Shown: positions 949 through 61,087 of the stretch, in pieces | How positions within the stretch are numbered: position 1 is the first letter of the stretch | Layout of the letters: each line of letters begins with the position of its first letter | DNA from: Vibrio sp. YMD68 | GTDB lineage: Bacteria > Pseudomonadota > Gammaproteobacteria > Enterobacterales > Vibrionaceae | Assembly (NCBI RefSeq): GCF_029958905.1 | Contig: NZ_CP124614.1 | Location: 1,984,001-2,048,000, forward strand | Direction: 5' to 3' | DNA length: 64,000 nucleotides | Program-made: the position numbers and the translations under genes | Notes under the pieces: model-generated | Told to the model about the DNA's origin: nothing | Seen by the model: the letters and a program-made list of their open reading frames with translations, nothing else | Database searches by the model: none

Positions 949-1013
949 AAGCTTCTAAACCAAGCTGCTAAACCAAGCTTCTAAGCTAAGCTGCTAAACC
1001 AAGCTTCTTAAAC
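949..1013. repeat. 13-nt tandem repeat, five copies
   Basis: Five head-to-tail copies of aagct(t/g)ctaaacc start at 949, 962, 975, 988 and 1001. Position 6 alternates T, G, T, G, T, so the array can also be read as a 26-nt unit. It begins 12 bases after the stop codon of the preceding gene. No T-run or hairpin marks it as a normal terminator. Confidence 0.9.
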
Positions 1014-1219
1014 TTAAATGAGTCCCTAAAGAGCCCCTAAACAAAGCGATGCAGTCCGAGCATTTTTGATTCCCCCCACGACTCCCACACTGAAAAAGGT
1101 GAATAGCCCTATTTTATGTGGGTTTTTGTCTTACCTATGCTTGGTTATACTTCGCGTGATTTTAATACGCCTAGAAGGCACGCACTGGATTTACGTTCCA
1201 GCTCGCAGAAGGAAAAACC

Positions 1220-2209
1220 ATGTCTCAATATGTTGTATGCGCACTCTATAAGTTTGTCACGCTAAACGATTACCAAGAAATTCGCCAACCGCTCACCGAA
1301 CTCCTTGAAGCCAATAAAATTAGAGGTACCTTGTTACTAGCAAGTGAAGGAATTAATGGCACAGTTGCTGGTAAACGTGAATCCATCAATGCATTACTTG
1401 AATGGTTCAAGCAAGATACTCGCCTAGCCGATGTTGTTTACAAAGAATCGTTTAATGAAGAACAGCCTTTCAACCGCACAAAAGTAAAGCTGAAAAAAGA
1501 AATCGTCACCATGGGCGTAGAAGGCATCGACCCTCTTAATGTGGTCGGTACGTATGTGAAACCAAGCGATTGGAATGCACTCATTTCCGATCCAGACGTG
1601 TTACTAGTGGATACGCGTAACGACTACGAAGTGGACATTGGTACATTCAAAAATGCCGTCAATCCAAACACTGAAACATTCCGTGAATTCCCACAATACG
1701 TTGCCGACAATTTAGACCCAGCCAAACACAAAAAAGTGGCCATGTTCTGTACTGGTGGCATCCGCTGTGAAAAATCAACCGCTTACATGAAAGAGCAAGG
1801 ATTTGAAGAGGTTTACCACCTGGAAGGCGGCATTCTCAAGTATTTGGAAGATGTACCAGAAGAAGAAAGCCTATGGGAAGGTGACTGCTACGTGTTCGAC
1901 GGGCGCGTTGCCGTCAATCATCAACTAGAAAAAAGTGGTTACGATGTTTGTAACGCTTGTCGCTTACCCATCACTAATGAAGACAAAGAATCGATGCATT
2001 TCGAAAAAGGCGTGAGCTGCCCTAAGTGTGTCGACAAACACAGTGATGAGCAAAAAGCACGCTTCCGTGAACGTGAAAAGCAAGTTCAATTATCTAACTT
2101 ACGTGGTGAAACCCATGTTGGTGGTGAAGCTGCTCATTTGATTGAACAACGCAAAAAAGCAAAGTTGGCGCTAAAAGAGCAACAGCGTTCAGGAAAGAAA
2201 ATACAATAG
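1220..2209 (+). CDS. trhO: tRNA uridine(34) 5-hydroxylase TrhO (YceA family)
   Basis: A 329-residue rhodanese-family protein that, in the characterised family, hydroxylates U34 of certain tRNAs, the first step to 5-carboxymethoxy/methoxyuridine, using oxygen rather than prephenate. The N-terminal ~95 residues match the family's acylphosphatase-like domain, followed by a rhodanese domain (about 115-215) with the catalytic Cys near residue 177 in the motif FCTGGIRC. Two further Cys pairs (VCNAC, SCPKC) lie near residues 250-275, and the tail is basic. The ATG at 1220 has an AGAAGGA ribosome site seven bases upstream. The length is close to that of the E. coli protein. It is monocistronic and ends before a strong bidirectional terminator. 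Confidence 0.93.
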
Positions 2210-2276
2210 AATAAAACGACAGGGTGTTGTGATTGTACAGTTTGTGATGACAAGGTTTACAATGGCAATATTTACC

Positions 2277-2313
2277 AAAAAAGTGGTCTAGATTTTATCT
2301 AGACCACTTTTTT
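2277..2313. terminator. Bidirectional rho-independent terminator
   Basis: A perfect 16-bp stem (2277-2292 with 2298-2313, loop tttta) has an A-run on one side and a T-run on the other. It lies between the convergent trhO and YitT-like genes and can stop transcription from both. Confidence 0.93.
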
Positions 2314-2337
2314 ATCTTAAAAACGTTACCTTAAAGA

Positions 2338-2949: not shown

Positions 2950-3136
2950 GTTTGAATGTCCTTATTAATACCACTGAAATTACCCACTTCGCCAGTTCAG
3001 TCACGAGCTCTGGCTTTGAAGGACGCTAAGATCGCTTCAATTGCGCAAAATGTCGATAAGGATTTATAAATTCAATGTGAAGCGGGTGTTAAAAAATCTA
3101 TACAGCGTGCTTTTTACCAACAAAAATCGTCAATAA

Positions 3137-3156
3137 ATACCGGTAATGAACGGTAT
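3137..3156. promoter_or_regulatory. Operator-like inverted repeat upstream of BLUF gene
   Basis: ATACCG and CGGTAT form a perfect 6-8-6 inverted repeat about 80-98 bases before the BLUF start codon. The size and spacing suit a dimeric regulator. The regulator is unknown and the assignment is inference. Confidence 0.4.
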
Positions 3157-3234
3157 AAATCAGCAGGGCTTGCTCGCATTTCCCATACTATCGCTTATAT
3201 TTAATAGAGATATGTGTAAAACAGAGAATGCTCT

Positions 3235-6269: not shown

Positions 6270-6317
6270 TAATTATTTTCACCGCTAATTATTTTCACCG
6301 CTAATTAATTTCACCGC
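6270..6317. repeat. 16-nt tandem repeat, three copies, across a stop codon
   Basis: Three copies of taatta(t/a)tttcaccgc start at 6270, 6286 and 6302. The first two are identical and the third differs by one base. The stop codon of the minus-strand binding-protein gene (6285-6287) lies across the junction of copies one and two, so the last codons of the gene are part of the duplicated unit. Confidence 0.92.
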
Positions 6318-7508
6318 ATTGTTTTCATCATATTTAGCCATGCACAAATCATCAGCACCTAACGCTTCATGCGCATCGAGGTCTTGCGAGCTAAAGACTC
6401 TAAACGGTTGGTTGTATTTTTTAATCAAACCTTGGACGGGTACTGCCAATGATTCCAACGACTCCTTCAGTTTCCTTTGATTCAATTTTGCATCGTGGGT
6501 TAATACCGTATTGTCTGCCGCTTGAAGGAAAATCTTCGCCAAATCATAACTGTGCACGAAGCCTGCAGGCGCTGCGATATTGCGTGTGGCATAATCGTTG
6601 GGATACAAAGCCTGAGCCCGGTTGAAGACATCTTGCTGGAAGCGATTATTCTGTTGGCTATAAAAATTGAAACAAGACTGAACGAAATTAAGCTGTGCAT
6701 TTTCTCTTGTTTCTAAAGAGACTCTCTGTGCGAAATCTCCCCCGGTAATACCCCAATGGCTATAGACCGGCGTGTTCAATTCAAGGTCACTCACCCCTTG
6801 AACAATCAACCGACCTTCCCGAGCGTTACTGACTAATAATAGACAATCGGCATTCGTGTCGATGGATTCGCGAATTTTGATTCTTGCGTCAATATCAGAA
6901 ATCCCCCAATTAAACCAAGTGACTTGCACTTTGGCTTTCAGTTCTTTGGGCAGTGCTGATTTCATGGCTTCATAATTTGATTTTCCCCATGCCGTATTCT
7001 CTAACATAAGTTGAGGTTGCTGACATTGATTGGCTAACGCATGTTTCACCAAAATACTGCCGACCTTTGAGTCATCAACCGATAGGCGAAAAACAAAATT
7101 ATTGTCAGGGGATGGGTAGCGAGTAATGGGCGCACCAGCAGCCCAAGGTACTAACGTTAGCATCTGCGATTCATTGATAAACTGACGATATTTAATCAAT
7201 GGCGGTGAATGTATCCCTGAGATATACGCTAACCCATTAGGATCTTTGGAAAAGCGTTCCATATTTTTTAGACTACGAAGTGAGTTCCCACGATGGTCTA
7301 ACACGACGAACTCTACCGGAACACCACCAATTTGGTCGCCAACTTCCGAAAACGCGACACGAACCCCCTGTTCAATCGATCGCGCCGATTCAATATGTCC
7401 TGTTCTATCGGCATCTAAATAGACTCGAAATACGCTGGGTTCGGCAGCAAATAGAGCGGAACAATATACAGTGAGTAAAACCAGCAACCATTTAGTCATA
7501 ATAACCAT
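6285..7508 (-). CDS. Periplasmic binding protein, type 1 (branched-chain amino-acid-like)
   Basis: A 407-residue secreted protein. It has a signal peptide (KWLLVLLTVYCSALFAA, cleavage after AEP region) and then the two-lobed type-1 periplasmic binding fold of the LivJ/LuxP superfamily: an N-terminal beta strand FRVYLDADRTG, GVRVAFSEVGDQIGGVPVEF, VVLDHRGN, and a hinge/second lobe containing PVYSHWGITGGDF. Only free Cys in the mature protein are a few scattered residues. No ABC permease or ATPase gene lies nearby. Its downstream neighbour is a hybrid kinase, so it probably acts as a sensory ligand receptor rather than for uptake, by analogy with LuxP. An alternative ATG lies at 7499 (MTKWLL) and gives a more compact signal peptide. 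The 3' end carries the 16-nt repeat. Confidence 0.85.
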   Translation of the reverse strand: MVIMTKWLLVLLTVYCSALFAAEPSVFRVYLDADRTGHIESARSIEQGVRVAFSEVGDQIGGVPVEFVVLDHRGNSLRSLKNMERFSKDPNGLAYISGIHSPPLIKYRQFINESQMLTLVPWAAGAPITRYPSPDNNFVFRLSVDDSKVGSILVKHALANQCQQPQLMLENTAWGKSNYEAMKSALPKELKAKVQVTWFNWGISDIDARIKIRESIDTNADCLLLVSNAREGRLIVQGVSDLELNTPVYSHWGITGGDFAQRVSLETRENAQLNFVQSCFNFYSQQNNRFQQDVFNRAQALYPNDYATRNIAAPAGFVHSYDLAKIFLQAADNTVLTHDAKLNQRKLKESLESLAVPVQGLIKKYNQPFRVFSSQDLDAHEALGADDLCMAKYDENNAVKLISGENN

Positions 7509-10423: not shown

Positions 10424-10456
10424 AAAAAAACGCCGAAGATGGTTGTCTTCGGCGCT
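10424..10456 (-). terminator. Rho-independent terminator of the rhlE-like gene
   Basis: The stem cgccgaaga/tcttcggcg (10431-10439 with 10446-10454) is followed, in the minus direction, by seven T. It is placed to stop transcription from the helicase gene at 10566 after the tandem repeat. Confidence 0.88.
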
Positions 10457-10474
10457 TTTCATTTGACGCTGAGC

Positions 10475-10535
10475 TTTGCAAACTTAGCGCTTCAAACTTG
10501 GTACTTTTAAACTTAACGCTTTTAAACTTAACGCT
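10475..10535. repeat. 15-nt tandem repeat, about four copies
   Basis: Two identical units tttaaacttaacgct (10506, 10521) are preceded by two diverged ones (tttgcaaacttagcgc at 10475 and ttcaaacttggtact at 10491). The array lies in the 3' untranslated part of the rhlE-like gene, between its stop codon and terminator. Confidence 0.85.
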
Positions 10536-10565
10536 TTAAAATATAGGGTCTGAAACGTAGAACCG

Positions 10566-11864
10566 CTATTTCTTAAGGCTTGCTGGCTTGTTTTTGTTCA
10601 CAATCATCTTGCGCAGCCTTGCTCGTTTTTCTGCTGACCCTTGATTGGAATCTGATGGGTTGTTTGTTCTTGTTTTGCGATTTTTAAACGCCGGCTTGGA
10701 GTGCATTTTCTCCAACAACGCATCACGATTCTTTGGCTCATAGCCCGCTTGCTCGACTCGATAAATCGTATGACCTATCAGCGACTCGACCTGCTGCAGT
10801 GTCAATTCTTCTTCTCGGCTTACAAAGGAAATAGCGTGTCCTTTTTGACCAGCACGACCGGTGCGGCCAATGCGATGAACATAATCTTCTGCCAAAAATG
10901 GCATATCGAAGTTCACTACGTGAGGCAAGTCTTTGATGTCTAGGCCACGCGCTGCAACATCCGTGGCAATCATCACGCGAGCTTTGCCTTCTTTAAACTC
11001 TTCCAGGGCTCTTCTACGGGCACTTTGTGCCTTATCACCATGGCATAACACCGCTTTAATGCCATCAAGTTTTAACTCTTTTAGCAGCATATTGGCGGTT
11101 TCTTTGTAGTTAACAAATACCAAGACTTGTTTCCAGTTTTTACGACCAATCAGCTCTGAGAGCATTTCACGTTTTCGCTCTTGATCGACGGGGTAAACAA
11201 CATGTGCAATGGTCTCTGCTGTCACATTCTCTCTGGCGACAGAGATGCGTTTTGGTTGACGCAAAATTTCGCCTGCCAATTTATTCATTTGTGGCGAGAA
11301 CGTCGCTGAAAAGAGCATAGTTTGAGGCTTGGTTGAGATCCCACCCATGATGGTTTCAATAGAAGAGATGAAGCCCATATCGAGCATGCGATCCGCTTCA
11401 TCAAACACCAAGAACTCTAAGTTCACCAATGAGACATTGTTGTCATCTAAATGCTCAATTAATCGACCCGGTGTAGCGACCAATACATCAACACCTTGTT
11501 GGAGGCTTTTCACTTGCGATGACATTTTCGCCCCACCGTATACCGCTGCAACAGAGAGAGAGGTGTACTTAATGTAGTCTTCTATATTTTGCGCGATTTG
11601 GGCAACCAATTCTCGTGTTGGTGCAAGAATAAGCGCTCTCGCTTGATGGCGATTCGTTGTTTTAGGCTTGTCGAGCAATTGCTGAATAATAGGCAAAGAA
11701 AAAGCGGCGGTTTTACCCGTTCCCGTTTGTGCGTTCGCAAGAATATCGTGACCACGACGAGCGTGAGGAATAGCTTGTTTTTGTACTGGTGTTAGTTTTT
11801 CGTAGCCGCACTCCGACAGTGCTTTCACTATTTCTGGCGCAAAATTCTGAGATGAAAATGACAT
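10566..11864 (-). CDS. rhlE: DEAD-box ATP-dependent RNA helicase, RhlE type
   Basis: A 432-residue RNA helicase. It has the Q-motif (FAPEIVKALSECGYEKLTPVQ), motif I AQTGTGKT, motif Ia PTRELVAQ, DEAD box VFDEADRMLDMGF, SAT, and the C-terminal RecA domain with ARGLDI and HRIGRTGRAGQ, followed by a short basic tail (about 385-432) that probably helps RNA binding. RhlE proteins remodel ribosome-assembly and mRNA-decay complexes. Vibrio genomes carry several members, so the gene name is by subfamily similarity only. Divergent from the second helicase gene at 12245 across 380 bases. It ends with a long 3' tail containing a repeat and a terminator. Confidence 0.85.
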   Translation of the reverse strand: MSFSSQNFAPEIVKALSECGYEKLTPVQKQAIPHARRGHDILANAQTGTGKTAAFSLPIIQQLLDKPKTTNRHQARALILAPTRELVAQIAQNIEDYIKYTSLSVAAVYGGAKMSSQVKSLQQGVDVLVATPGRLIEHLDDNNVSLVNLEFLVFDEADRMLDMGFISSIETIMGGISTKPQTMLFSATFSPQMNKLAGEILRQPKRISVARENVTAETIAHVVYPVDQERKREMLSELIGRKNWKQVLVFVNYKETANMLLKELKLDGIKAVLCHGDKAQSARRRALEEFKEGKARVMIATDVAARGLDIKDLPHVVNFDMPFLAEDYVHRIGRTGRAGQKGHAISFVSREEELTLQQVESLIGHTIYRVEQAGYEPKNRDALLEKMHSKPAFKNRKTRTNNPSDSNQGSAEKRARLRKMIVNKNKPASLKK

Positions 11865-13801: not shown

Positions 13802-16012
13802 ATGCCAAAGGAAAACAGTGCTCACGATGAGTTATTGACCATTATCGACGACACACAAGGCGATATTGAAGAGGTCGATCACTCCAATTACTGGCGCGTA
13901 TTGGTGGTTGACGACGACGAGGATGTCCATGTTGCTACTAACCTCACATTAAACAGCTTAGTGATCGAGGATCGAACGTTAGAATTATTGCACGCTTATT
14001 CAGCGGCTGAAGCGGAGACGCTACTTAAAGCAGAAGAAGACATCAGTGTCGTACTATTGGATGTGGTTATGGAGTCTGAGCATTCTGGATTAGATCTGGT
14101 CGATACCATCCGCAATGATTTAATGTTAGATGACGTTCGTATAGTCCTGCGTACCGGACAACCCGGTTATGCACCAGAGATGGAAACCATCAAAAAGTAC
14201 GACATCAATGATTACCGAACCAAATCTGACTTAACTCGAATTCGCCTTTTCACCATATTGACCAGTGCGATACGTGCTTACAAGCAAATCAGGCAGCACA
14301 AAGTCATGCGACAGGGGTTGGAAAACGTCGTCAGTGCCAGCACGAAAATGGCGAATATCCATGGCATGAGACTGTTTGCTGAAGGGGCCGTTAAGCAAAT
14401 AAGCGCACTGATACAAATAGAGCCCGATGGATTGATCTGTGCTCAAGACGGTTCCCATGATAATGCCGACAATATTCATGTTATCGCGGCTTCAGGTCGA
14501 TACAGTAACCTGGTACAGGCCCCTTTAGACAGTTTAAAATCGCCTAAAATAAAGCAGTTGCTTACCCATTGTTTGCAACAAAAAAAGAACCTAGTCGATG
14601 ATGGGCTTACCCTCTACTTCTCTACCGATAGAGGGCGAGGAATAGCCGCCTACGTCGATATTGACCGTCCACTCAATAGCGTTGACCAACATTTACTGGA
14701 AGTATTTTGTGCCAACCTCTCGGTCGGTTTTGATAATGTCTTTCTCTACAACAAACTTGAAGAACAGGCCTATACAGACCCTTTGCTCAAGGTGCCCAAT
14801 CTTAATTACCTGCTTAAATATCTGTGCAGCCCAATCGATCATTCTGAAACCTCTCTATTGGCCTTGATTGATCTCGATGATTTTTCAGCCATCAACGACA
14901 GTTTCGGTCATCAATTTGGCGACTCGGTACTCAAAGAAGTCATCAATCGGTTAACAAGTCGATTCCCTCAATGTTTTCTTGCTCGAGTCAGCAGTGATGT
15001 ATTTGCGCTTATTGGCCTTGAATCGGAAGTGAACTCATCTCTTATCATTGACACATTCGAAAATGAATTCATCGTCAATGAACAACCTTTTAAACTCAGT
15101 GCCAGTGTTGGTTTGGTCAAACTTGCAGAGCGCACCACCGAGCTCACCGACTTATTCAAAGATGCTCAGGTCGCACTCAAGCAAGCGAAAGTTCATAAAC
15201 GTGGCGGAGCAATGACTTTCTCACAAGACATGGGGCAATGTGCTCGAGAAAGAATACAGCTATTGACCCAACTGCGGCTGGCGCTGACCAAAAATGCGCT
15301 GTTTCTTATGTATCAGCCTAAGTACCACCTTGAAACCAAAACGATAACGGGCATGGAAGCGTTGCTGCGTTGGCGAACGGACAGTGGTGATCTCATTCCA
15401 CCGGATCAGTTCATCCCACTCGCGGAACAATCGGGAATGATGCTGACCATCGGTGCTTTTGTCATGCAGCGATCGTGTGAGCAATTAAGGCAATTAAATC
15501 AGGCTGGTTTTGAAGACATCAGCATGGCTATTAATATTTCACCCTCTCAACTTGAAGATTCGGGGTTTATTTCTTCGCTTCAATACTCTCTTGAAAGTAC
15601 GGGGATTTCACCACAGCAATTGGAATTAGAAATCACTGAAACCGTCGCGGCGAATGATTTTGACTACATTTGCAACGTGCTGACTGAGGTAAGAAATCTC
15701 GGCTGCAAAGTCGCGATAGACGATTTTGGAACGGGCTTTTCCTCACTCAGCGTTCTACACAAACTGCCCGCGACACGATTAAAAATCGATAGAGCGTTTG
15801 TTGATGCGATGGATGAAGACGACAGCATTGCCAAAATGATCGTGAATCTTGGAAAAACATTGGGCCTAGAAGTGACCGCTGAAGGCATTGAAACCGATGA
15901 GCAATTTGAAAAGCTCAAATCCTTTGGTTGTGAAGAAGGTCAAGGCTGGTTATTTGCCAAAGCGATGGTTCTTGAAGAGCTCATCTCAGAGCTTAAACAA
16001 AGTAAAGCCTAA
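13802..16012 (+). CDS. Response regulator REC-DUF3369-GGDEF-EAL, predicted c-di-GMP phosphodiesterase
   Basis: A 736-residue cytoplasmic regulator: receiver (about 30-150, phospho-acceptor Asp87 in VLLDVVMESE, loop VLRTGQPGYAP), DUF3369 (about 165-315), GGDEF (about 330-480) and EAL (about 490-735). In the GGDEF domain the active site reads SSDVF and the I-site RxxD is missing, so cyclase activity is not expected. The EAL domain keeps EALLRW, NISPSQLE, LEITET, DDFGTGFSSL, KIDRAF and AEGIET, which are the metal-binding and catalytic residues, so it should hydrolyse c-di-GMP. The ATG at 13802 has CTGGAGA upstream. The downstream kinase is its likely partner. It shares REC and DUF3369 with the HD-GYP regulator at 7569. 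Confidence 0.93.
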   Translation: MPKENSAHDELLTIIDDTQGDIEEVDHSNYWRVLVVDDDEDVHVATNLTLNSLVIEDRTLELLHAYSAAEAETLLKAEEDISVVLLDVVMESEHSGLDLVDTIRNDLMLDDVRIVLRTGQPGYAPEMETIKKYDINDYRTKSDLTRIRLFTILTSAIRAYKQIRQHKVMRQGLENVVSASTKMANIHGMRLFAEGAVKQISALIQIEPDGLICAQDGSHDNADNIHVIAASGRYSNLVQAPLDSLKSPKIKQLLTHCLQQKKNLVDDGLTLYFSTDRGRGIAAYVDIDRPLNSVDQHLLEVFCANLSVGFDNVFLYNKLEEQAYTDPLLKVPNLNYLLKYLCSPIDHSETSLLALIDLDDFSAINDSFGHQFGDSVLKEVINRLTSRFPQCFLARVSSDVFALIGLESEVNSSLIIDTFENEFIVNEQPFKLSASVGLVKLAERTTELTDLFKDAQVALKQAKVHKRGGAMTFSQDMGQCARERIQLLTQLRLALTKNALFLMYQPKYHLETKTITGMEALLRWRTDSGDLIPPDQFIPLAEQSGMMLTIGAFVMQRSCEQLRQLNQAGFEDISMAINISPSQLEDSGFISSLQYSLESTGISPQQLELEITETVAANDFDYICNVLTEVRNLGCKVAIDDFGTGFSSLSVLHKLPATRLKIDRAFVDAMDEDDSIAKMIVNLGKTLGLEVTAEGIETDEQFEKLKSFGCEEGQGWLFAKAMVLEELISELKQSKA

Positions 16013-16027: not shown

Positions 16028-16063
16028 GCAGCCTTCTTGTCAAAAGCAGCCTTCATGTCAATC
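16028..16063. repeat. 18-nt direct repeat after the GGDEF-EAL gene
   Basis: Two copies of gcagccttc(t/a)tgtcaa(a/t)(a/c) start at 16028 and 16046, 15 bases after the stop codon and before the kinase start. This makes the TTG/ATG codons inside the repeat unlikely translation starts. Confidence 0.75.
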
Positions 16064-18300: not shown

Positions 18301-18355
18301 GTGCGCCTACTGGTTAGTGCGCTTACTGGTTCGTGAGCCTACTGGTTCGTGGGCC
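18301..18355. repeat. 16-nt tandem repeat, three and a half copies
   Basis: Units gtgcgcctactggtta (18301), gtgcgcttactggttc (18317) and gtgagcctactggttc (18333) are followed by a partial fourth (18349). The array begins 26 bases after the stop codon of the Cache kinase. Confidence 0.9.
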
Positions 18356-23983: not shown

Positions 23984-24221
23984 GGGTATAAAACTCTCGG
24001 TGAACGGAATTGAGCTGTAGCTTTATTGCTCGCGAGCTCCCGAATAAATCCGAATAGCTCCCAAGCTGAGATGTTCTCTATAGAGGCGAAGCGAAGATAG
24101 CCATACTGATACTGTCAGAGGCTATCTTTCACTTTGCCGAACAGAGAACGGCGAATGGCGGACATCTTTGTCGGCCATCACTTCTCTAAATATGGAAATC
24201 GACCTCTCTAAATCTAGAAAT
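23984..24221. other. Region upstream of the ohrR operator with composite repeat
   Basis: No gene is visible. It holds the composite inverted repeat at 24073-24178, described separately, between the ohrR promoter and the 3' end of the GGDEF-EAL gene. Confidence 0.5.
24073..24178. repeat. Composite inverted repeat (two nested hairpins)
   Basis: The outer arms GTTCTCT (24073-24079) and AGAGAAC (24143-24149) enclose nested arms AGATAGCC (24095-24102) and GGCTATCT (24120-24127), with partly complementary segments between them and a small CTGA/TCAG stem at the tip. It makes a 77-base imperfect hairpin. A second hairpin, ATGGCGGACA/TGTCGGCCAT (24155-24164 with 24169-24178), follows directly. Such two-part palindromes are typical of intergenic repeat families or MITE-like elements. 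I cannot name the family. It could also be a structured RNA end. Confidence 0.6.
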
Positions 24222-26222
24222 CTAACTCACCTTTCTGAGGTACTGAACTTTTGCGAGGTTAGCACTAAACAGTCGCTCTATGAGAATACTGGCGGGTTGC
24301 GGATTAGTCATAAAGTAGCCTTGCCCAATAAGACACCCAAAATCTTGCAGATCTTCTTGTTGCTTGCTCGTTTCAACTCCTTCAGCAACCACATCTAAGC
24401 CAAGCTCTCTTCCTAGATTTAGAATATTTTTGAGTAACACCATTGATTTGGCGCTTTCTCTGTAATCCGCCACAAAACTTCGGTCAATTTTGAGTGTTTG
24501 AAAGTCGAATTCTTTCAAGTAGGAGAGTGATGAAAATCCAGTGCCAAAATCATCCAAAGCCAAACGAACGCCAAGTTGCTTTAACTCCTTGAAGATGACT
24601 TTCGCTTGTTCTGCGTTTTCAATCAGCACACTCTCTGTGATTTCTAATTCTAAACTTGTTGTGTCAACGCCAGAATCGATAACAATGCGCTTTAACTGCT
24701 CAAAGAACGCCTGATTTTTGAGGCTTTTTGCAGAAACATTAATCGCCATCGTCCCCGTATCAATCTCCCTCGCCTGCCACTCTTTTTGTTGCTCAATTGA
24801 CTTGGACAACACCATCAAATCTAGCTCTCGAATCAATCCTGTCGATTCAGCAATGGGAATAAATGCATCTGGGCAAATCATGCCTTTTGTCGGGTGAAAC
24901 CACCGTAGAAGGGCTTCAACACCCACAATCTTGCCGCTTCTCAGTTCCCATTTCGGCAAATAATAAAGTGTAAATTGGTCTCGCTTAATGGCGGTTTTTA
25001 GATCGCGTTCGATTTCTATTCTCGACATCGAAATGCGATTAAGCTCTTCAGAGTAGAACTGAAAGTTGTTCTTTCCCAAAGACTTAGCGTGATACATCGC
25101 GTTGTCAGCGTAACGCATCAAAGAATCACTGTTCATACTGTCATCAGGATATATCGCAATACCGATGCTGGCTGAAATGGATGCGCAAACATCATTAATT
25201 TGAAAAGGGCGTTGCAGCGCCTTATTCAGGCTTTTGGCTATTTTACCGGCCGCATTGGTGGCTTTTTGCACATCATTGAGATGTTCAAGAACGACAACAA
25301 ATTCGTCTCCGCTGATTCTTGCGGCAGTATCGGAGTCTCGAATGCAGTGGTTGATGCGCGTTGCGACACTTTTTAGAAGTTTGTCACCAATGTCGTGACC
25401 ATATTGATCGTTGACGGTTTTGAAATGATCTAAATCGATGAACAGCACAGCAAACGTATTCTTTAATCGTGACGCTCTCGAAACAGACTTTTCCAAGCTC
25501 TCTAGAAACATCACCCGATTTGGCAATTTCGTCAGAGAGTCATAATGTGCTTGGTTATGCAGTTGTTCATTTTTGGCCGCGATAGATTCATTCGCTTTAC
25601 TTAAGGATTCAACCCAAACGGTTCTGTTCTCTTCAAATTTATTAAGCACTCGGTACAAGTACGCAACACTAGCAATGGAGACCATGATCAACATAATGCT
25701 GATGTACTGGTATCTTTGGATTCCCTCTTCTAGGTGCATTTTCACGGCTCTTTGGACATCATCCGCTTCTTGAATGAAGTCTAGGAACATTTCATCTGAC
25801 CGGATATCAATGGCCGAACCTGCACTTGAGATATCTTTATTTTGATGCCTTAGTAACGCTTCATTTCTAAACTTGACGAGTGTGTCTCGCATTGAAACCA
25901 AGATGATTCGCAGAGCGGAATCTTGAATGGGCTTAAAGTCACCCTGTATGCTGCTCCCACCTTCTAGCAAAGCTAATGTATGCCAGTCTGCAAGGTCGAG
26001 GTAATACCACACCTCTTGCACCGACTGAGTGGCATCCCCAGACATAACCTCTTCGAACCAAAGGTGCGCCAGTGTGCCGTTAATTTTGATTTCCTGAGAG
26101 GCTTCAATCAGCGGGGCTTTCTCTGTCAACAATTTGTTCGCTTGCGCAAACAGTAACGTTGTTAAGGAAATAATAATTCCTGCCAAAGTAACCGTGAGTA
26201 AAAATAACCTCTTTGCCTTCAT
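24222..26222 (-). CDS. Membrane GGDEF-EAL c-di-GMP turnover protein
   Basis: A 666-residue inner-membrane protein. A single N-terminal TM (about 7-27) leads into a periplasmic, mostly helical sensor region, then a second TM (about 175-195), then GGDEF (about 225-385) and EAL (about 400-650). The GGDEF site is SGDEF and is preceded at the correct distance by the I-site RDSD, so feedback-inhibited cyclase activity is possible. The EAL domain has EALLRW, NVSAKSLKN, LEITES, DDFGTGFSSL, KIDRSF and AEGVET, so it should be an active phosphodiesterase. Which activity dominates is not decidable from sequence. It is divergent from an orphan PstS-like gene, suggesting that it may read a periplasmic signal from that protein. 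Confidence 0.92.
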   Translation of the reverse strand: MKAKRLFLLTVTLAGIIISLTTLLFAQANKLLTEKAPLIEASQEIKINGTLAHLWFEEVMSGDATQSVQEVWYYLDLADWHTLALLEGGSSIQGDFKPIQDSALRIILVSMRDTLVKFRNEALLRHQNKDISSAGSAIDIRSDEMFLDFIQEADDVQRAVKMHLEEGIQRYQYISIMLIMVSIASVAYLYRVLNKFEENRTVWVESLSKANESIAAKNEQLHNQAHYDSLTKLPNRVMFLESLEKSVSRASRLKNTFAVLFIDLDHFKTVNDQYGHDIGDKLLKSVATRINHCIRDSDTAARISGDEFVVVLEHLNDVQKATNAAGKIAKSLNKALQRPFQINDVCASISASIGIAIYPDDSMNSDSLMRYADNAMYHAKSLGKNNFQFYSEELNRISMSRIEIERDLKTAIKRDQFTLYYLPKWELRSGKIVGVEALLRWFHPTKGMICPDAFIPIAESTGLIRELDLMVLSKSIEQQKEWQAREIDTGTMAINVSAKSLKNQAFFEQLKRIVIDSGVDTTSLELEITESVLIENAEQAKVIFKELKQLGVRLALDDFGTGFSSLSYLKEFDFQTLKIDRSFVADYRESAKSMVLLKNILNLGRELGLDVVAEGVETSKQQEDLQDFGCLIGQGYFMTNPQPASILIERLFSANLAKVQYLRKVS

Positions 26223-27666: not shown

Positions 27667-28578
27667 ATGCTTAATCCACTTTGGCTGAACACGTTTAAAA
27701 CCCTTGTCGATATTGGCCACTTCACCCAAACCGCTGAAAAGCTGTACATGACTCAGCCAGGTGTCAGCCAACATATCAAAAAGCTTGAGTCAGCATGTAA
27801 ACATTCGTTAATTAAGCGAGAAGGAAAAAGCTTTGAGCTGACAGAACAAGGAAGAATGGTGTATCAATACGCACTCACATTAGCCAATAATGAGGCGATG
27901 CTGGTTGAAAGCCTGAGCTTTGATAATCCATTTTCAGGTCAATGTAAAATTGCGTGTTCGGGTTCGCTGGCGTTGCGTCTATACCCCGAACTCATCACAT
28001 TACAGCAGACGCACTCCGACTTGAGTATTCACCTTGAAGCCGCACCAAATCACAAGATCCTGAATGATTTACAAACGGGAGCAATCGACCTAGGCATCGT
28101 AACTCATATTCCCACGGGCAATCTTTTCCAAAGTAAAATCATTGGTAACGAGACGTTATGTTTAGTTGTACCTCGGTCATTCGACAATGAAAGAATAACC
28201 GCAGAAAAACTGATTGAATGTGGGCTCATCAGCCACCCTGATGCTAATCACTACTTATCACTCTACTTTGATTTATGTGGCGATAAAGAGCTAGAGAACC
28301 TTAATCTGGATGACATTCCACATTCCGGCCATATCAACCAACTTAGCCAGATTCTGCTTCCGGTAGCTAAAGGCATTGGATTTACGGTTATCCCTCAAGG
28401 CGCAATCGACAGTTTTTCAGAAAAAGAACAGCTGCATATTGTTTCGACCCAGTCCCCAGTCAATGAAACGTTATACATGGTACAAAAACGTCACAGAAAC
28501 CTGCCCGCTCGTTATGAGACGATCGCCGACTTACTTGATCAAACGCTTTCATCAAACACTTTCAGCAAACCGAGATAG
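27667..28578 (+). CDS. LysR-family transcriptional regulator
   Basis: A 303-residue LysR-type regulator. The ATG at 27667 (MLNPLWLNTFKTL) is used because GAGG stands ahead of it and it places the HTH at residues 1-62; a longer frame from 27490 has no such site. The HTH motif FTQTAEKLYMTQPGVSQHIKKLE is typical. The effector domain (about 90-300) spans the PBP fold with CSGSLALRLYPELI. There is no divergently transcribed partner gene, so the target is unknown. It lies 284 bases downstream of the PstS-like gene. Confidence 0.9.
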   Translation: MLNPLWLNTFKTLVDIGHFTQTAEKLYMTQPGVSQHIKKLESACKHSLIKREGKSFELTEQGRMVYQYALTLANNEAMLVESLSFDNPFSGQCKIACSGSLALRLYPELITLQQTHSDLSIHLEAAPNHKILNDLQTGAIDLGIVTHIPTGNLFQSKIIGNETLCLVVPRSFDNERITAEKLIECGLISHPDANHYLSLYFDLCGDKELENLNLDDIPHSGHINQLSQILLPVAKGIGFTVIPQGAIDSFSEKEQLHIVSTQSPVNETLYMVQKRHRNLPARYETIADLLDQTLSSNTFSKPR

Positions 28579-42412: not shown

Positions 42413-43609
42413 ATGTCAAAGGGGAAACAGACCCAGCTCATCACCGCTGGGCGAGATAAGAAATGGACCAATGGTGTGGTTAACCCTCCGGTACAACGTG
42501 CATCAACCATCGTATTTGATACCGTTGCTGAAAAAAATGCGGCAACATTGAACAGAGCGAATAAAACGCTTTTCTACGGACGCCGAGGAACAAATACACA
42601 CTTTGCGTTCCAAGATGCAATGACAAAACTAGAAGGTGGTGCGGGATGCGCACTTTATCCTTGTGGAACCGCCGCAATATCAAACGCCATTTTATCGTTT
42701 GTTGAAACTGGCGATCACATTTTGATGGTCGACACTTGCTACGAACCGACTCGTGATTTTTGTAATACTATTATGAAAAAAATGGGCGTTGAAACCACCT
42801 ACTACAACCCACTTATCGGTGAAGGTATTCGCGATCTTATTCAGCCAAATACCAAGATATTGTTTACCGAGTCCCCAGGTTCTGTAACGATGGAAATTCA
42901 AGATATACCCACGTTATCGCGCATTGCACACAAGCACGATATCATCGTTATGCTCGATAATACTTGGGCAGCGGGTGTTAACTTCTCGCCGTTTGAATAC
43001 GGTGTCGATATTTCCATACAAGCGGCGACTAAATACATCGTTGGGCATTCCGATGTCATGTTAGGGACCGCAGTCGCGAATGAAAAGCACTGGCCTCAAC
43101 TTAGAGAGCAAAGTTATTTGATGGGCCAATGCGTGTCACCGGACGACGCTTACTTGGCACTACGAGGGATACGGACACTGGATGTTCGTTTGCGACAGCA
43201 CGCTGAAAATAGCTTGACCATCGCCAAATGGTTAGAAAGTCACCCTGACGTCGATCATGTCCGTCATCCGGCGCTTGCTTCCTGCCCTGGCCATGAGTTC
43301 TTTGAAAGAGATTTCACTGGCGGTAACGGCCTGTTCTCTTTTGTTCTAAAAGAGTCTCACCCTAAGGCAACCACAGAACTGCTCGATGGAATGCGTCATT
43401 TCAGCATGGGATATTCATGGGGTGGGTTTGAAAGCCTGATTTTAGCGAACGAACCTAGAAGCTTTAACAGTTTACGTACCGTTGCGAACCCAAACTTTGA
43501 AGGGACTTTGATTCGTATTCATGTGGGCCTTGAAAACGTAGATGATTTGATTGACGATCTAAAATCTGGCCTCGAGCGCTACAAGCAAGCAGTGGCGTCA
43601 GCTCAATAA
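42413..43609 (+). CDS. metC: Cystathionine beta-lyase
   Basis: A 398-residue PLP enzyme of the Cys/Met metabolism family that cleaves cystathionine to homocysteine, pyruvate and ammonia in methionine biosynthesis. The PLP lysine is Lys207 in QAATKYIVGHSD, with YGRRGTNTHFAFQDAM and LYPCGTAAISN around the phosphate loop and DNTWAAG before the lysine. The gamma-synthase/gamma-lyase-like alternatives are less likely because the sequence keeps the metC pattern (EPGSVTMEIQDI reads as ESPGSVTMEIQDI). AAGGAACTGAT precedes the ATG. Followed by an 18-nt repeat. Confidence 0.9.
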   Translation: MSKGKQTQLITAGRDKKWTNGVVNPPVQRASTIVFDTVAEKNAATLNRANKTLFYGRRGTNTHFAFQDAMTKLEGGAGCALYPCGTAAISNAILSFVETGDHILMVDTCYEPTRDFCNTIMKKMGVETTYYNPLIGEGIRDLIQPNTKILFTESPGSVTMEIQDIPTLSRIAHKHDIIVMLDNTWAAGVNFSPFEYGVDISIQAATKYIVGHSDVMLGTAVANEKHWPQLREQSYLMGQCVSPDDAYLALRGIRTLDVRLRQHAENSLTIAKWLESHPDVDHVRHPALASCPGHEFFERDFTGGNGLFSFVLKESHPKATTELLDGMRHFSMGYSWGGFESLILANEPRSFNSLRTVANPNFEGTLIRIHVGLENVDDLIDDLKSGLERYKQAVASAQ

Positions 43610-43615: not shown

Positions 43616-43651
43616 CTTTGCTCCACTTGCAAGCTTTGATCCACTTGCAAG
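43616..43651. repeat. 18-nt direct repeat after metC
   Basis: Two copies of ctttg(c/a)tccacttgcaag start at 43616 and 43634 and a partial third follows. The array begins six bases after the metC stop codon. Confidence 0.88.
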
Positions 43652-43677
43652 CTCTGAGCTGCGGAATCGAAGAATGT

Positions 43678-43708
43678 GCCTTTCGACTCGTTAATTCAGT
43701 CGAAAGGC
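43678..43708. terminator. 11-bp hairpin between metC and tag
   Basis: GCCTTTCGACT (43678-43688) and AGTCGAAAGGC (43698-43708) pair perfectly around a 9-base loop, between convergent metC and tag. No long T-run follows on either strand, but the stem is strong enough to act as a shared 3' end. Confidence 0.6.
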
Positions 43709-50432: not shown

Positions 50433-50441
50433 AGAACTCTC

Positions 50442-55982: not shown

Positions 55983-56977
55983 TGCCGCTATTAGATATTC
56001 GCCATCTCACGATTGAAATAGACACCCCTCAAGGCTTAGTCAAAGCGGTAGATCGAATGAGTCTAACCTTAAATGAAGGAGAGATTCGAGGTCTCGTTGG
56101 CGAGTCGGGATCAGGTAAAAGTCTTGTCGCTAAGGCCATTGTAGGAGTTTGTAAAGACAACTGGAAAGTGACCGCCGATCGCATGCGTTTTGGAAACATA
56201 GACCTTTTGCAACTCGCGCCCAGAGAAAGACGTAAAGTCATCGCCCGTGATATCGCTATGATTTTCCAAGAACCTTCTACTTGCCTTGACCCATCTGAGA
56301 AAATCGGTAAACAGTTGATTGAATCCATCCCTTCAAGAACATTTACAGGGCGCTGGTGGGAACGATTAAAATGGCGTAAAAAACAAGCCATCACCCTACT
56401 GCATAAAGTAGGCATAAAAGATCATAAGAGCTTAATGGAAAGCTACCCATATGAGCTAACGGATGGGGAATGCCAGAAAGTGATGATCGCAATGGCTATC
56501 GCGACTAAGCCTAAGATATTAATTGCCGATGAGCCGACCAATGATCTCGATCCAATAACGCAATCACAAATTTTGCGCCTGTTAAGCCGGATGAATCAAC
56601 TGCACAATACGACCATTATGTTGGTTGGGCACGACTTAGCCACCATTACTCAATGGGCGACCCGCATCACAGTAATGTATTGTGGACAATCGGTAGAATC
56701 CGCCAGTACCAAGAAGATTTTGTCCGCGCCAAAGCATCCTTATACTTCTGCATTGCTGAAAGCCGTCCCTGATTTCAGTGATTGGATTCCGCATAAACAG
56801 AAATTACAGTCTTTACCCGGCTCTATTCCACCTCTTCAGCATCTACCGATTGGCTGTCGACTCGGACCACGATGCCCTTACGCTCAAAAACAATGCGTAA
56901 TGATTCCCCCTACTAGGCGGATTAAGCAACATAAATTTGCTTGCCACTTTCCTCTTAACATGGAGAAAAAACAATGA
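55982..56977 (+). CDS. sapD: SapD-type ABC ATPase
   Basis: A 331-residue ATP-binding protein with Walker [10 protein letters not shown], Walker [11 protein letters not shown] and H-loop GHDLAT. The ABC signature is altered to LTDGECQK instead of LSGGQ, as in E. coli SapD, so this is family-typical rather than damage. A C-terminal oligopeptide-transport extension contains [14 protein letters not shown] with Cys that may bind metal. It overlaps sapF by four bases. Confidence 0.93.
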
Positions 56978-57759
56978 GCGCATTGTTGGAAGTCAACGGG
57001 CTGAAAAAAGACTTTGTTACCCGTTCTGGCTTTTTCCGAAAGAAAATTCAACACGCGGTTAAGCCCGTCAGTTTTTCATTGGATGCAGGGCAAACCATCG
57101 GATTTATCGGCCAAAACGGCTCTGGAAAATCAACACTTGCTCGAATGCTTTCCGGTATGGTTGAACCTACAGAGGGTGACATTCGCGTTAATGGCGAACT
57201 GTTAGAGCACAAAGACTATTCGACACGTTGCAAACTGATTCGAATGATTTTTCAAGATCCAAACACGTCTTTGAACCCCAGGATTCAAGTGGGCCGAATA
57301 CTTGAAGGGCCGCTGAAGAGAAACACCAATATGACTCCTGACGCTCGAATGAAACGGGTGAAAGAAACGTTAAGAAGAGTTGGTCTTTTACCTGAGCACG
57401 CCTATTTCTATCCACAAATGTTAGCAACAGGGCAAAAACAGCGCATTTGTTTGGCGAGAGCCCTCATTCTTCAGCCTTCCATTATTGTTGCAGATGAAGC
57501 CCTCAATGGCCTCGACATGGCAATGCGATCTCAGATCATCAACCTATTTTTGGAACTACAAGAAGAGATGGGCGTTTCTTTTGTGTACGTATCCCAACAT
57601 ATTGGAATAATGAAGCACATTACCGATAAAGTAATCGTGATGCATGAAGGCGATGTCGTAGAATCAGGAGAGACACACCAAGTGTTATCTGACCCCCAAC
57701 ATCCTATCACTCAACGTATGATTGAAAGCCATTTTAATAAAGCGCCTTTTTTCAAATAA
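56974..57759 (+). CDS. sapF: SapF-type ABC ATPase
   Basis: A 261-residue ATPase pairing with SapD. Walker [10 protein letters not shown], signature region MLATGQKQR (altered from LSGGQ, as in E. coli SapF), Walker [13 protein letters not shown] and H-loop SQHIGI. Its last codons (AATAAAGCGCC...) are part of a 19-nt duplicated segment running past the stop codon. Confidence 0.93.
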
Positions 57760-57806
57760 AGCGCCCTTTTTTAAACAGCCTAACTTGGTTAAACAGCCTG
57801 AACGTG
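57736..57806. repeat. Two direct repeats at the end of sapF
   Basis: First, aataaagcgccttttttca (57736) is repeated as aataaagcgccctttttta (57755), so the stop codon TAA at 57757-57759 is the start of the second copy. Then ttaaacagcctaacttgg (57771) is repeated as ttaaacagcctgaacgtgg (57789). These are 19-nt and 18-nt units back to back. Confidence 0.88.
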
Positions 57807-57896
57807 GGATCAATGAGTACAAAAGATTCCGTCAAAGTCATTCCGCCTGTTCTTACAGTGAATGACTTTCATTGAGGAGTGACTCGATAGCGTTAA

Positions 57897-58356: not shown

Positions 58357-58372
58357 AATGATTCACATTTGG

Positions 58373-59278: not shown

Positions 59279-59708
59279 TTTTCTTCCTGTTCATTTAGTT
59301 TGTTCACCCTCTGCGGGGTGAGGTTGCTCACAAAGGTGTTACTTTACCTGAATTTTTAAATTTGTCATTCCTTTACACGTCAAAGCACAAACCAAGCTTG
59401 TCTCTGTCATTTTTTTTCGATCTATAACGTATCTTTTTAACCGGATTTTTCTATCCCTTTTATCATCACCCACCACCATTTTTTATCGCTGCTTTCCGGC
59501 GCTAAGCCTAATTTTCCCACATATACCATACAGTTACTTTCAAATTTACGAGCAAGGAATAGGCTTTTAAAGCGGAACGACTTCTGTTGTACGTCTTAGT
59601 GCTGATATTGGCAAAAGGCCGTTATCTAAAAAACCAAAGCAAATGCGATTGATAATAATTATCATTTGCATATAATGAAGGTATTGAATAATTACGGATG
59701 CTCTGTTG
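59279..59708. other. Divergent region between ppaC and metal exporter genes
   Basis: 430 bases. Next to ppaC there is a CACCC/GGGGTG hairpin (about 59308-59323). The rest is AT-rich, and the last 60 bases hold the Fur-box promoter of the exporter gene. No further gene is visible. Confidence 0.5.
59649..59676 (+). promoter_or_regulatory. Sigma-70 promoter covered by a Fur-type box
   Basis: TTGATA (59649-59654, -35) and TATAAT (59671-59676, perfect -10) are 16 bases apart. Between and over the -35 lies TGATAAT-A-ATTATCA (59650-59664), a perfect 7-1-7 inverted repeat of the Fur class; the 19-base site GATAATAATTATCATTTGC matches the classical Fur consensus at 15 positions. Fur bound there would block RNA polymerase. 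Confidence 0.8.
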
Positions 59709-60929
59709 ATGAATACATTCAGCCCTTTTAGCAAACATTTATCTTGGCTTTCATCGACTCAGTTTCGTTTAACTTATAAACGACTGATTCTTCCTATTTG
59801 TCTCATTGCTCTGCTGGCATCCGATACCACGAGGCAAATCACCGTAACCACTTTATCCGATGCTTTTTGGGCGGTTTCATGTTACGTCGCATTTACCTTG
59901 GCGATTTATCACTACCTTTCCAATCGAATGAGTAAAAACAGTCAACTGGTTAAGCTCTATACTCGCTCTCGTACTCATCAGGTCATTTTTGCTTCGCTTC
60001 TCGGGGCGTTACCCGGTTGTGGAGGCGCTATTGTAGTGACAACCCAATTCATCAGTGGTCGCGTAGGATTCGGAGCAATGGTGGCGGTACTCACCTCCAC
60101 AATGGGTGATGCCGCTTTTCTGCTGATTGCGAGTGCACCTAAAGTGGGATTAAGTGTTATTGCTCTTGGGGTTGTTGTAGGGTGCGTCTCTGGGTGGACC
60201 GTCAATAGACTGCATAGAGATGATTTCTTAAGGCCTGAGATTGAAACAATGCCAGAGAACAATTCTCGAATGAACCTCCTACACCAAGCAGAATGTTCAG
60301 AGAAAAAATTCGAAAGCAAAGCCATCAATTTACAAGGCATGTTCTGGAAAGCGCTGCTCATTCCAGTGACAATAGTGGCAGTACTCGGTTCGTTTCAAGT
60401 GGATATTAATCATCTTTTATCCCTTTCTGATATGACCATCGAGTGGATTGGCTGCATACTCATCATTGTTAGCATGCTTTTGTGGTCATTAACTAAAGAG
60501 TTAAAAGACTACCAAACCACCGTTTCTGAAGATCTAAAATACTCGACCTCTCACCCGATTCAAAAAGCGGCCCAAGATACCAATTTTGTCACCGCCTGGG
60601 TCATCATCGCCTTTCTGTTTTTTGAGCTCGCTGCATTTTTTTCTGGTCTTGATATTAAAGCCAGCGTTTCTGGTTGGGGAGTCTGGATGCCACTCATCGG
60701 GTTGGCTGTTGGTATTCTTCCTGGTTGCGGCCCACAGATATTGATCACCAGTCTTTACTTGTCTGGGGCGGTTCCGCTATCGAGCCAACTGGCTAATTCA
60801 ATTTCAAACGATGGTGATGCGTTGTTCCCTGCAATCGCTCTTGCACCAAAAGCCGCCTTGATAGCAACGATTTACTCAGTGATCCCCGCCTTTATTGTCG
60901 GCTATGGGTATTTCTTTCTATTTGAGTAA
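59709..60929 (+). CDS. Putative 10-TM heavy-metal exporter (ArsP_2-like, annotated by some as manganese transporter)
   Basis: A 406-residue inner-membrane protein with about ten hydrophobic helices and two similar halves. Each half carries a Gly-rich repeat: LGALPGCGGAIV with GRVGFGAMVAV and GDAAFLLIASAPK in the first, and VGILPGCGPQILI with DGDALFPAIALAPK in the second. This inverted-repeat pattern fits the ArsP_2-type putative heavy-metal exporter family. The true substrate is unknown. ATG at 59709 is preferred to the TTG just before it. The promoter is Fur-boxed. A ~16-nt tandem repeat follows the stop. Confidence 0.75.
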   Translation: MNTFSPFSKHLSWLSSTQFRLTYKRLILPICLIALLASDTTRQITVTTLSDAFWAVSCYVAFTLAIYHYLSNRMSKNSQLVKLYTRSRTHQVIFASLLGALPGCGGAIVVTTQFISGRVGFGAMVAVLTSTMGDAAFLLIASAPKVGLSVIALGVVVGCVSGWTVNRLHRDDFLRPEIETMPENNSRMNLLHQAECSEKKFESKAINLQGMFWKALLIPVTIVAVLGSFQVDINHLLSLSDMTIEWIGCILIIVSMLLWSLTKELKDYQTTVSEDLKYSTSHPIQKAAQDTNFVTAWVIIAFLFFELAAFFSGLDIKASVSGWGVWMPLIGLAVGILPGCGPQILITSLYLSGAVPLSSQLANSISNDGDALFPAIALAPKAALIATIYSVIPAFIVGYGYFFLFE

Positions 60930-60942
60930 CCCACAAAGATTT

Positions 60943-61087
60943 CAGTTTGTGTGGTTTTCGTTTGTGTGACTTCCGTTTATGTAGCTGTCAGTTTATAAAG
61001 CTATCAGTTTATACAGCCATCCGTATAGATAGCCGTCAGTTTTTACGCAGTAATCGGTTTTCACTTGGCAATCGGTTTTCATTTAGC
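60943..61087. repeat. Degenerate 15-18-nt tandem repeats between convergent genes
   Basis: Seven units of 15-16 nt, most similar around cagtttatacagccat, start at 60943, 60959, 60974, 60989, 61005, 61021 and 61037. Two 18-nt units aatcggttttca(c/t)tt(g/a)gc then start at 61052 and 61070. The second unit contains the TGA stop of the alpha-galactosidase gene (61079-61081, minus strand), so again a gene end is inside a tandem repeat. 18 is a multiple of 3, so the second copy continues the frame after the stop. Confidence 0.85.

What the first reader, a model, noticed from the sequence alone, without database searches (positions are those of the whole stretch)
949..61087. Short tandem repeats placed on or right after stop codons, all over the window
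At least nine gene ends carry back-to-back copies of a 13-19-nt unit: 949 (13 nt x5), 6270 (16 x3), 10475 (15 x4), 16028 (18 x2), 18301 (16 x3.5), 43616 (18 x2), 57736 (19 x2 and 18 x2), 60943 (16 x7) and 61052 (18 x2). Units differ in sequence from locus to locus, so they are not one dispersed element. Three sets include the stop codon itself. Nearly all others begin within about 30 bases after a stop, and only the rhlE-linked set (10475-10535) lies 31-91 bases beyond one. This points to a local process (slippage, or selection on mRNA 3' ends, read-through or transcription-replication conflict) that acts at gene ends. I am not aware of a description of such a pattern.
Basis: partly seen in the sequence, partly recalled or inferred. 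Interest (0 to 1): 0.72.

Follow-up and report, generated by a model that had tools for sequence, protein, structure and literature searches.

The report
Tandem repeats after Vibrio gene ends
In this marine Vibrio, short pieces of DNA (mostly 12-18 letters) have been copied head-to-tail just after many genes, with little sequence shared from place to place; the pattern is real and fast-changing, and most likely records a copying error that survives best behind genes rather than a purposeful device.

Summary
All nine listed sites are in the sequence. In 1.36 Mb sampled from this Vibrio genome (nearest named match: Vibrio genomosp. F10 ZF-129), arrays with units of 10 nt or more and no shorter sub-period number 40 in 37.3 kb of convergent gaps, 43 in 104.4 kb codirectional, 6 in 53.2 kb divergent and 23 in 1,152 kb of other, mostly coding, DNA. 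Shuffles give almost none. ZF-129 shows the same; other Vibrio examined show it more weakly; E. coli K-12 had 1 in 31.7 kb. Arrays grow from local DNA: four window sites have about one copy or less in ZF-129. Twelve tandem differences of 12-23 nt separate the two genomes; eight are clean single-to-double events, four without bordering homology and four with some. Best reading: a clade-elevated process making short tandem duplications, kept mainly where they do little harm, behind genes. Head-on replication conflict is not supported. Attraction to the stop codon itself is not seen in this genome's convergent gaps. Density follows the number of genes ending at a gap (about 2:1:0), more steeply than substitution divergence does, so a mutational link to transcript ends stays open.

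The parts
949..1013 (+). 13-nt unit x4.9, starting 12 nt after the stop of the + gene ending at 936
   Evidence: sister genome has a 13-14-nt array at the same place
6270..6317 (-). 16-nt unit x3 containing the TAG stop of the - gene 6285-7508
   Evidence: sister protein tail NAVKIIH*, window NAVKLISGENN*; sister appears to have one unit
10475..10541 (-). 15-nt units (about 4, degenerate), 24 nt after the stop of the DEAD-box helicase gene 10566-11864, before a hairpin + T-run (about 10425-10465, by eye)
   Evidence: about one copy in sister
16028..16061 (+). 18-nt unit x2, 15 nt after the stop of the EAL/GGDEF gene 13802-16012
   Evidence: two diverged copies also in sister
18301..18355 (+). 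16-nt unit x3.5, 26 nt after the stop of the histidine-kinase gene ending 18274
   Evidence: less than one copy in sister
24183..24222 (-).
   Evidence: not compared with sister
43616..43657 (+). 18-nt unit x2.3, 6 nt after the stop at 43609, before a hairpin at about 43665-43705 (by eye)
   Evidence: gap not cleanly alignable with sister
57736..57775 (+). 19-nt unit x2.1 spanning the stop of the ABC-transporter gene 56974-57759; protein end unchanged
   Evidence: one copy in sister with a 4-nt direct repeat at its borders
57771..57807 (+). 18-19-nt unit x2 following the previous set
   Evidence: seen by eye; both copies also in sister
60941..61040 (+). 16-nt units, about 6-7 degenerate copies, after the stop of the ArsP_2-family gene ending 60929
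   Evidence: the compared stretch is 80 nt shorter in sister
61052..61092 (-). 18-nt unit x2.3 spanning the TGA stop of the - gene 61079-62824; protein end unchanged
   Evidence: one copy in sister
28538..28570 (+). 13-nt unit x2.5 inside the end of the CDS ending 28578; same copy number in sister
62857..62917 (.). 7-nt unit array (different size class), nearer a start than a stop; shorter in sister

Best explanation
These are local minisatellites made by a process that copies a stretch of mostly 12-20 nt (peak 16) head-to-tail; a pair can then grow to several copies and decay by point mutation. Shown by sister-genome comparison: the first step, single to double. Inferred: the growth step, from multi-copy arrays whose site has about one copy in the sister. 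The process acts genome-wide and is more active in the Vibrio genomosp. F10 clade than in the other genomes compared. What survives depends on position: inside genes nearly only multiples of three survive, upstream of starts spacing matters, and behind a stop, or across it with the first copy keeping the last codons and the stop, the change is nearly free. This yields arrays on or just after stop codons. The enzymology is inferred: misaligned DNA synthesis, using short bordering repeats in about half of the clean cases. A second component, a raised duplication rate at transcript ends, is possible but not shown.
For: Class densities and shuffles. Arrays wholly inside called genes have periods that are multiples of 3 in 19 of 21 against 26 of 89 in gaps. 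Sites 10475, 18301, 57736 and 61052 have about one copy or less in the sister. Among 178 orthologous gaps (32.3 kb), 17 clean tandem indels: five of 4-7 nt, none of 8-11, twelve of 12-23 nt. Of the twelve, 6 are codirectional (all in the stop half), 4 convergent, 2 divergent (both >100 nt from a start); 8 are single-to-double. Unit sizes peak at 16: 76 units of 12-18 nt, 7 of 19-22, 3 of 23-90; a single-base shuffle gave none of 12 or more. Position in convergent gaps of this genome is random. Substitution divergence within 30 nt is 0.127 behind convergent stops, 0.080 behind codirectional stops, 0.038 and 0.034 before codirectional and divergent starts. Lineage: no tandem indel of 12 nt or more in 26 kb of gaps from 20 other Vibrio pairs by the same rule.
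Against: Tolerance alone predicts too shallow a gradient: at 120 nt or more from any start, substitution divergence is 0.074-0.120 within 120 nt of a codirectional stop and 0.073-0.100 in divergent gaps, yet arrays are 18 in 22.0 kb against 1 in 10.0 kb. In the sister, codirectional arrays overlap the stop more than random placement gives (8 of 20 against 3.6, p = 0.005). Of the twelve tandem differences, two are copy changes in an existing array, one is a 5-nt-unit run and one is unclear, so the single-to-double evidence is eight events. No gene difference was found that explains the clade's higher rate.
Confidence: 0.6

Rival explanations
1. Transcript-end-linked duplication: the rate of duplication itself is raised in DNA where transcription ends (pausing, R-loops, nicks), so each ending gene adds its share and gaps with 2, 1 or 0 gene ends carry arrays in ratio 2:1:0.
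For: Convergent 1.79/kb (36 in 20.2 kb), codirectional 3' side 0.82/kb (18 in 22.0 kb), divergent core 0.10/kb (1 in 10.0 kb) in this genome (codirectional against divergent p = 0.012, convergent against codirectional p = 0.006); 1.29 (15 in 11.6), 0.74 (10 in 13.6) and 0 (0 in 5.1) in the sister. Substitution divergence does not fall in step. Where my rule found a terminator (46 of 119 arrays, both genomes), 29 arrays lie between stop and terminator, 10 beyond it, 5 overlap, 2 have one on both sides.
Against: No relation to a codon-bias proxy of expression (75 genes with, 509 without, p = 0.95). On chromosome 1 arrays are rarer near the origin (5 in 27.2 kb) and mid-arm (5 in 26.3) than near the terminus (26 in 29.3), while on chromosome 2 the order is reversed (9 in 14.4, 8 in 16.4, 4 in 16.8). 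Random position inside this genome's convergent gaps. Spacing constraint upstream of genes could give the same gradient without showing in substitutions.
Confidence: 0.25
2. Homology-independent duplication is the main source: for example strand displacement at a nick and ligation of an unremoved 5' flap, which would give a limited unit length and need neither bordering repeats nor end joining.
For: Four of eight clean single-to-double events have no bordering homology in either genome (L160 20 nt, L249 17 nt, L251 17 and 23 nt); narrow size peak; no Ku match in the genome, so end joining of staggered breaks is unlikely.
Against: The other four clean events have 4 nt (57736), 2 nt, 1-5 nt and an imperfect partial copy at the border, more than chance would give; exact pairs within this genome also average about 2.9 nt of border homology (22 arrays; partly inflated by third copies). 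Flap processing was not tested; two genes with a 5'-nuclease domain are present.
Confidence: 0.15
3. Selected 3'-UTR function: arrays act as spacers, back-up stops or RNA-protein binding sites at mRNA ends.
For: Arrays often lie between stop and terminator (29 against 10 beyond); 48 of 83 units, tiled, give stops in all three frames (no shuffled control run).
Against: Almost no shared unit sequence, no composition or folding signal, copy-number turnover from the sister.
Confidence: 0.1
4. Head-on transcription-replication conflict causes the arrays.
For: Gene-end placement only.
Against: Leading: lagging 32:25 for arrays against 388:285 for background stops, p = 0.89.
Confidence: 0.03
5. A dispersed mobile repeat family (REP/BIME-like, MITE).
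For: Intergenic placement; 6 array pairs share an 11-mer against 0.6 with shuffled units.
Against: That is 6 of 3,916 pairs, 9 of 89 loci; about-single-copy precursors sit at the same site in the sister.
Confidence: 0.02

Closest known systems
Bacterial minisatellites / VNTRs
   Same: Head-to-tail units, variable copy number, often intergenic
   Different: Here spread over the genome, preferentially behind genes, with mostly unrelated units of a narrow size; usually treated as individual typing loci (recalled)
Borg tandem repeats (PMC9879509; passages read)
   Different: Borg repeats are perfect, A-enriched, and 43-65% lie in ORFs; here arrays are often imperfect, not A-enriched and mostly in gaps behind genes
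De novo tandem duplications in a bacterial beta-lactamase gene (PMC4169377; passages read)
   Same: New two-copy duplications (9-60 bp); 3 of 11 bordered by direct repeats, 8 not
   Different: Selected in one gene under drug; no genome-wide gene-end pattern in the passages read
Small tandem duplications from fill-in at breaks in mammalian cells (PMC8355091; passages read)
   Same: Small duplications, in wild-type cells mostly not guided by microhomology
   Different: Needs Ku-dependent end joining, CST and Pol alpha-primase; Ku was not found in this genome
[quoted passage not shown] passages read)
   Same: mRNA sequence conservation is lost around the stop codon
   Different: Causes named there are rearrangements, local nucleotide changes and insertion sequences; short tandem duplications are not named in the passages read
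TAACTGA repeats of Beggiatoaceae (PMC4679880; passages read)
   Different: One fixed heptamer, mostly upstream of start codons

Membership tests
Bacterial minisatellite/VNTR | head-to-tail array of units of about 10 nt or more | tested here: met
Bacterial minisatellite/VNTR | copy number varies between related strains | tested here: met
   (one sister genome, about 90-96% identical DNA in the aligned pieces; no strains within one species)
REP/BIME or MITE (dispersed element) | shared sequence between copies at different loci | tested here: not met
   6 of 3,916 pairs share an 11-mer, shuffled control 0.6
REP/BIME or MITE (dispersed element) | hairpin-forming unit | tested here: not met
   mean fold z +0.19 over 47 arrays of 40 nt or more against tiled shuffled units
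Borg-type tandem repeats | perfect units, A-enriched | tested here: not met
   array A content 0.312 against 0.301 in post-stop DNA; many imperfect arrays
Direct-repeat-mediated slippage duplications | direct repeat bordering the duplicated segment before duplication | tested here: inconclusive
   eight clean events: four with none, four with 2-5 nt or an imperfect partial copy; within-genome estimate about 2.9 nt, confounded
Staggered-break fill-in with end joining | Ku present | tested here: not met
   0 Ku matches in the genome; of 14 control genomes the search rang in Bacillus subtilis
Flap-ligation duplications (recalled from yeast work) | rate depends on 5'-flap processing | not testable with these tools
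   5'-nuclease-domain genes are present; rate dependence needs mutants
Phase-variation repeats | copy number switches expression of a gene | not tested
   at two checked stop-spanning arrays the protein is unchanged, at one the C-terminus differs

The most novel reading that the evidence does not exclude
The Vibrio genomosp. F10 clade carries a lineage-specific duplication mutator: a process that copies a DNA segment of nearly fixed size (about 16 nt) next to itself, in about half of clean cases with no bordering homology, at a rate set by how many transcripts end at the site (2:1:0 in convergent, codirectional and divergent gaps), making transcript ends hot spots where new tandem repeats, and now and then new protein C-termini (gene 6285-7508), are born.
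Probability: 0.2. Interest if true: 0.75.

Novelty: new variant of a known kind. Interest (0 to 1): 0.48.

Why it matters
If right, gene-end DNA in this clade is an easily read recorder of a bacterial mutation type, short tandem duplication, that is usually purged. The two genomes already give its size spectrum, its place and a first comparison with other Vibrio, so the question of what sets the length, and whether transcript ends raise the rate, becomes testable. It also gives a concrete route by which 3'UTRs diverge quickly and by which stop-spanning duplications can change a protein's last residues, and it cautions against reading such arrays as regulatory elements.

Tried and rejected
Head-on conflict: tested by strand against GC-skew replichores, no bias. 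Dispersed element: unit sharing tested, rejected. RNA structure, base composition and an expression proxy gave no signal. Loss of a repair gene as cause of the high rate: an sbcC-like gene (below the family cut-off in 12 of 13 genomes, this one included), recJ and Y-family polymerases were looked for in 13 genomes, 5'-nuclease and Ku domains in this genome only; no obvious loss, but only presence was checked. Pure stop-codon attraction: not seen in this genome's convergent gaps, some signal in codirectional gaps and in the sister. Microhomology-free duplication as the rule: my first measure gave 0-1 nt in 10 of 12 events, but it stopped at the first mismatch and counted copy changes in old arrays; reading the events one by one gave four of eight without border homology, so I withdrew that claim. 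My first table by distance included rRNA-size gaps; it was repeated with gaps of 30-600 nt and without tRNA-bearing gaps. The long-indel list contains start-call artefacts at gene borders, and its per-kb bases include gene flanks; drop events more than 50 nt inside a gene. One of the 17 arrays filed as CDS lay outside any called gene. My first gene model was too weak (77% coding) and was replaced; on one E. coli stretch the final caller found 26 of 27 annotated stops but 18 of 27 starts, so distances to starts are fuzzy. Literature searches, titles and abstracts of the listed papers only, that showed no report of this pattern: 0 papers; 22 of 22 listed; 20 of 23; 15 of 60; 15 of 38; 1 of 1; 8 of 21; 12 of 87; 12 of 70; open-licence PMC only.
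Full report
WHAT WAS CHECKED. The window is G000:C2:1984001-2048000 of a three-contig genome (3.35, 1.34 and 0.17 Mb). The best named match of a window protein is Vibrio genomosp. F10 ZF-129 (99% protein identity); the aligned pieces of the window are about 90-96% identical to it in DNA. Every site of the finding is present. The nine window arrays of period 10 or more that my scan assigned to gaps begin between 33 nt before and 44 nt after the end of a stop codon.

GENOME-WIDE TEST. I took 65 stretches of 20 kb from the same genome plus the window (1.364 Mb of 4.85 Mb). The stretches are evenly spaced except for a block next to the window, so the sample is not random and the dense window region is over-represented. 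I called genes with a dicodon model of my own (check on E. coli: stops 26 of 27, starts 18 of 27) and scanned for tandem segments of period 10-40. Leaving out 18 arrays with a 7-8-nt sub-period, the counts are convergent 40 in 37.3 kb, codirectional 43 in 104.4 kb, divergent 6 in 53.2 kb, elsewhere (mostly coding) 23 in 1,152 kb. An earlier scan (stricter score, periods 10-30, sub-periods kept) gave 24, 37, 4 and 20; dinucleotide shuffles of the gaps gave 0.3 in all.

WHERE EXACTLY. In convergent gaps of this genome the arrays lie as if placed at random: 23 of 40 within 30 nt of a stop (22.8 expected). In codirectional gaps they lean to the stop side (19 of 43 against 13.2, p = 0.025). The sister gives 13 of 16 against 9.9 (p = 0.06) and 11 of 20 against 7.6 (p = 0.047), and there 8 of 20 codirectional arrays overlap the stop against 3.6 expected (p = 0.005; in this genome 5 against 4.8). 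The 3' flank rather than the stop codon is the main target, with some doubt from the sister. Arrays can cross the stop because a duplication that starts in the last codons keeps the protein end in its first copy: 57736 and 61052 leave the protein unchanged, while 6270 goes with different last residues.

WHAT HAPPENS OVER TIME. Against the sister, the sites 10475, 18301, 57736 and 61052 have about one copy or less where the window has two to about four. 949, 16028 and the second 57.8-kb set are repeated in both, 28538 (inside a CDS) is unchanged, 43616 could not be aligned, and the sister has an array of its own downstream of the 949 site. Over 178 orthologous gaps (32.3 kb) I found 17 clean tandem indels: five of 4-7 nt, none of 8-11 and twelve of 12-23 nt. 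Read one by one, eight of the twelve are single-to-double events, two are copy changes in an existing array, one is a run of 5-nt units and one is unclear. Bordering homology in the eight: none in four, 4 nt at 57736, 2 nt, 1-5 nt (depending on the genome used) and an imperfect partial copy in the others. Unit sizes in gap duplications peak at 16 and almost stop at 22 although 6-90 was scanned; a single-base shuffle gave none of 12 or more.

HOW WIDESPREAD. Density per kb of gaps: this genome 0.46 (89 arrays), ZF-129 0.40 (42), 79 other Vibrio loci around one conserved gene 0.11 (16 in 143.7 kb), nine unnamed Vibrio 0.18 (9 in 50.1 kb), Vibrio sp. THAF64 0 in 20.3 kb, Photobacterium 0 in 24.8 kb, Salinivibrio 1 in 21.3 kb, E. 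coli K-12 1 in 31.7 kb, Pseudoalteromonas 4 in 15.9 kb, all four in one divergent gap and three of them with 33-34-nt units. Twenty pairs of other Vibrio, 85-96% identical, showed no tandem indel of 12 nt or more in 26 kb of gaps, against twelve in 32 kb here by the same rule; at lower identity some old events may be missed. The 79 loci are one syntenic, gene-dense region, so that comparison is not a random sample.

WHY BEHIND GENES. Part of the answer is tolerance: substitution divergence is highest in convergent gaps, lower behind codirectional stops and lowest near starts, and duplications inside genes nearly always keep the frame (19 of 21, against 26 of 89 in gaps). But tolerance measured by substitutions does not cover the whole gradient. 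At 120 nt or more from any start, divergence is similar behind codirectional stops (0.074-0.120) and in divergent gaps (0.073-0.100), yet array density is 0.82/kb against 0.10/kb, and 1.79/kb where two genes end (sister 0.74, 0 and 1.29). The 2:1:0 series is what a per-transcript-end process would give. Against that: no strand bias, no relation to codon bias, opposite origin-terminus trends on the two chromosomes, and a dense patch at 1.88-2.09 Mb that contains the window (1.37/kb against 0.60 in the other terminus-third stretches and 0.32 in the rest of that chromosome; the smaller chromosome has 0.65). Spacing constraint upstream of promoters may act on insertions without showing in substitutions.

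MECHANISM. Shown: local origin, duplications of about 12-23 nt, and a higher rate in this clade than in the other Vibrio pairs examined. Inferred: misaligned synthesis, helped by short bordering repeats in about half of the clean cases, then ordinary expansion of the pair; for the rest a homology-independent route such as flap ligation is possible. Ku was not found. Two genes with a 5'-nuclease domain (polA- and xni-like by length, my naming), recJ, an sbcC-like gene and Y-family polymerases are present, so the cause of the clade's higher rate is unknown.

KNOWN WORK. The closest descriptions, all read in passages only, are the Borg tandem repeats, de novo duplications in a beta-lactamase gene, fill-in duplications in mammalian cells, 3'UTR evolution, TAACTGA repeats, repeat surveys of prokaryotes (PMC4060949; PMC12699852) and small variable segments of bacterial genomes (PMC2884548). 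None of the passages read describes gene-end arrays with locus-specific units. The searches, with capped lists, are given under Tried and rejected.

VERDICT. A real, genome-wide, fast-changing pattern; most likely a clade-elevated short-duplication process with retention behind genes. It is a new variant of a known kind. The transcript-end hot-spot reading is open and testable.

Noticed in passing
62857-62917; L019:11068-11141; L131:8070-8113: A second class of arrays with 7-8-nt units (13 of 7 nt and 5 of 8 nt in the sample) that also occurs in divergent gaps and away from stops.
   Followed up: partly
6270-6317 (gene 6285-7508): A 16-nt duplication over the stop codon goes with a different, longer protein C-terminus than in the sister genome.
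   Followed up: yes
G000:C2:1884001-2088000: Array density in this part of the largest contig, past the GC-skew terminus, is several times that of the rest of the contig; no cause found.
   Followed up: partly
L018 (G000:C1:900001-920000): Only 45% coding by my caller, with short + strand ORFs; looks like a superintegron cassette array (guess from layout, not tested).
   Followed up: no
L264:47722-48060 (Pseudoalteromonas piscicida replicon): A cluster of 25-34-nt tandem units in an 805-nt divergent gap.
   Followed up: no
L016:11323, L016:12541, L017:19033: Three arrays share a TGACCCCTTT core, the clearest sequence sharing between arrays at different loci.
   Followed up: no
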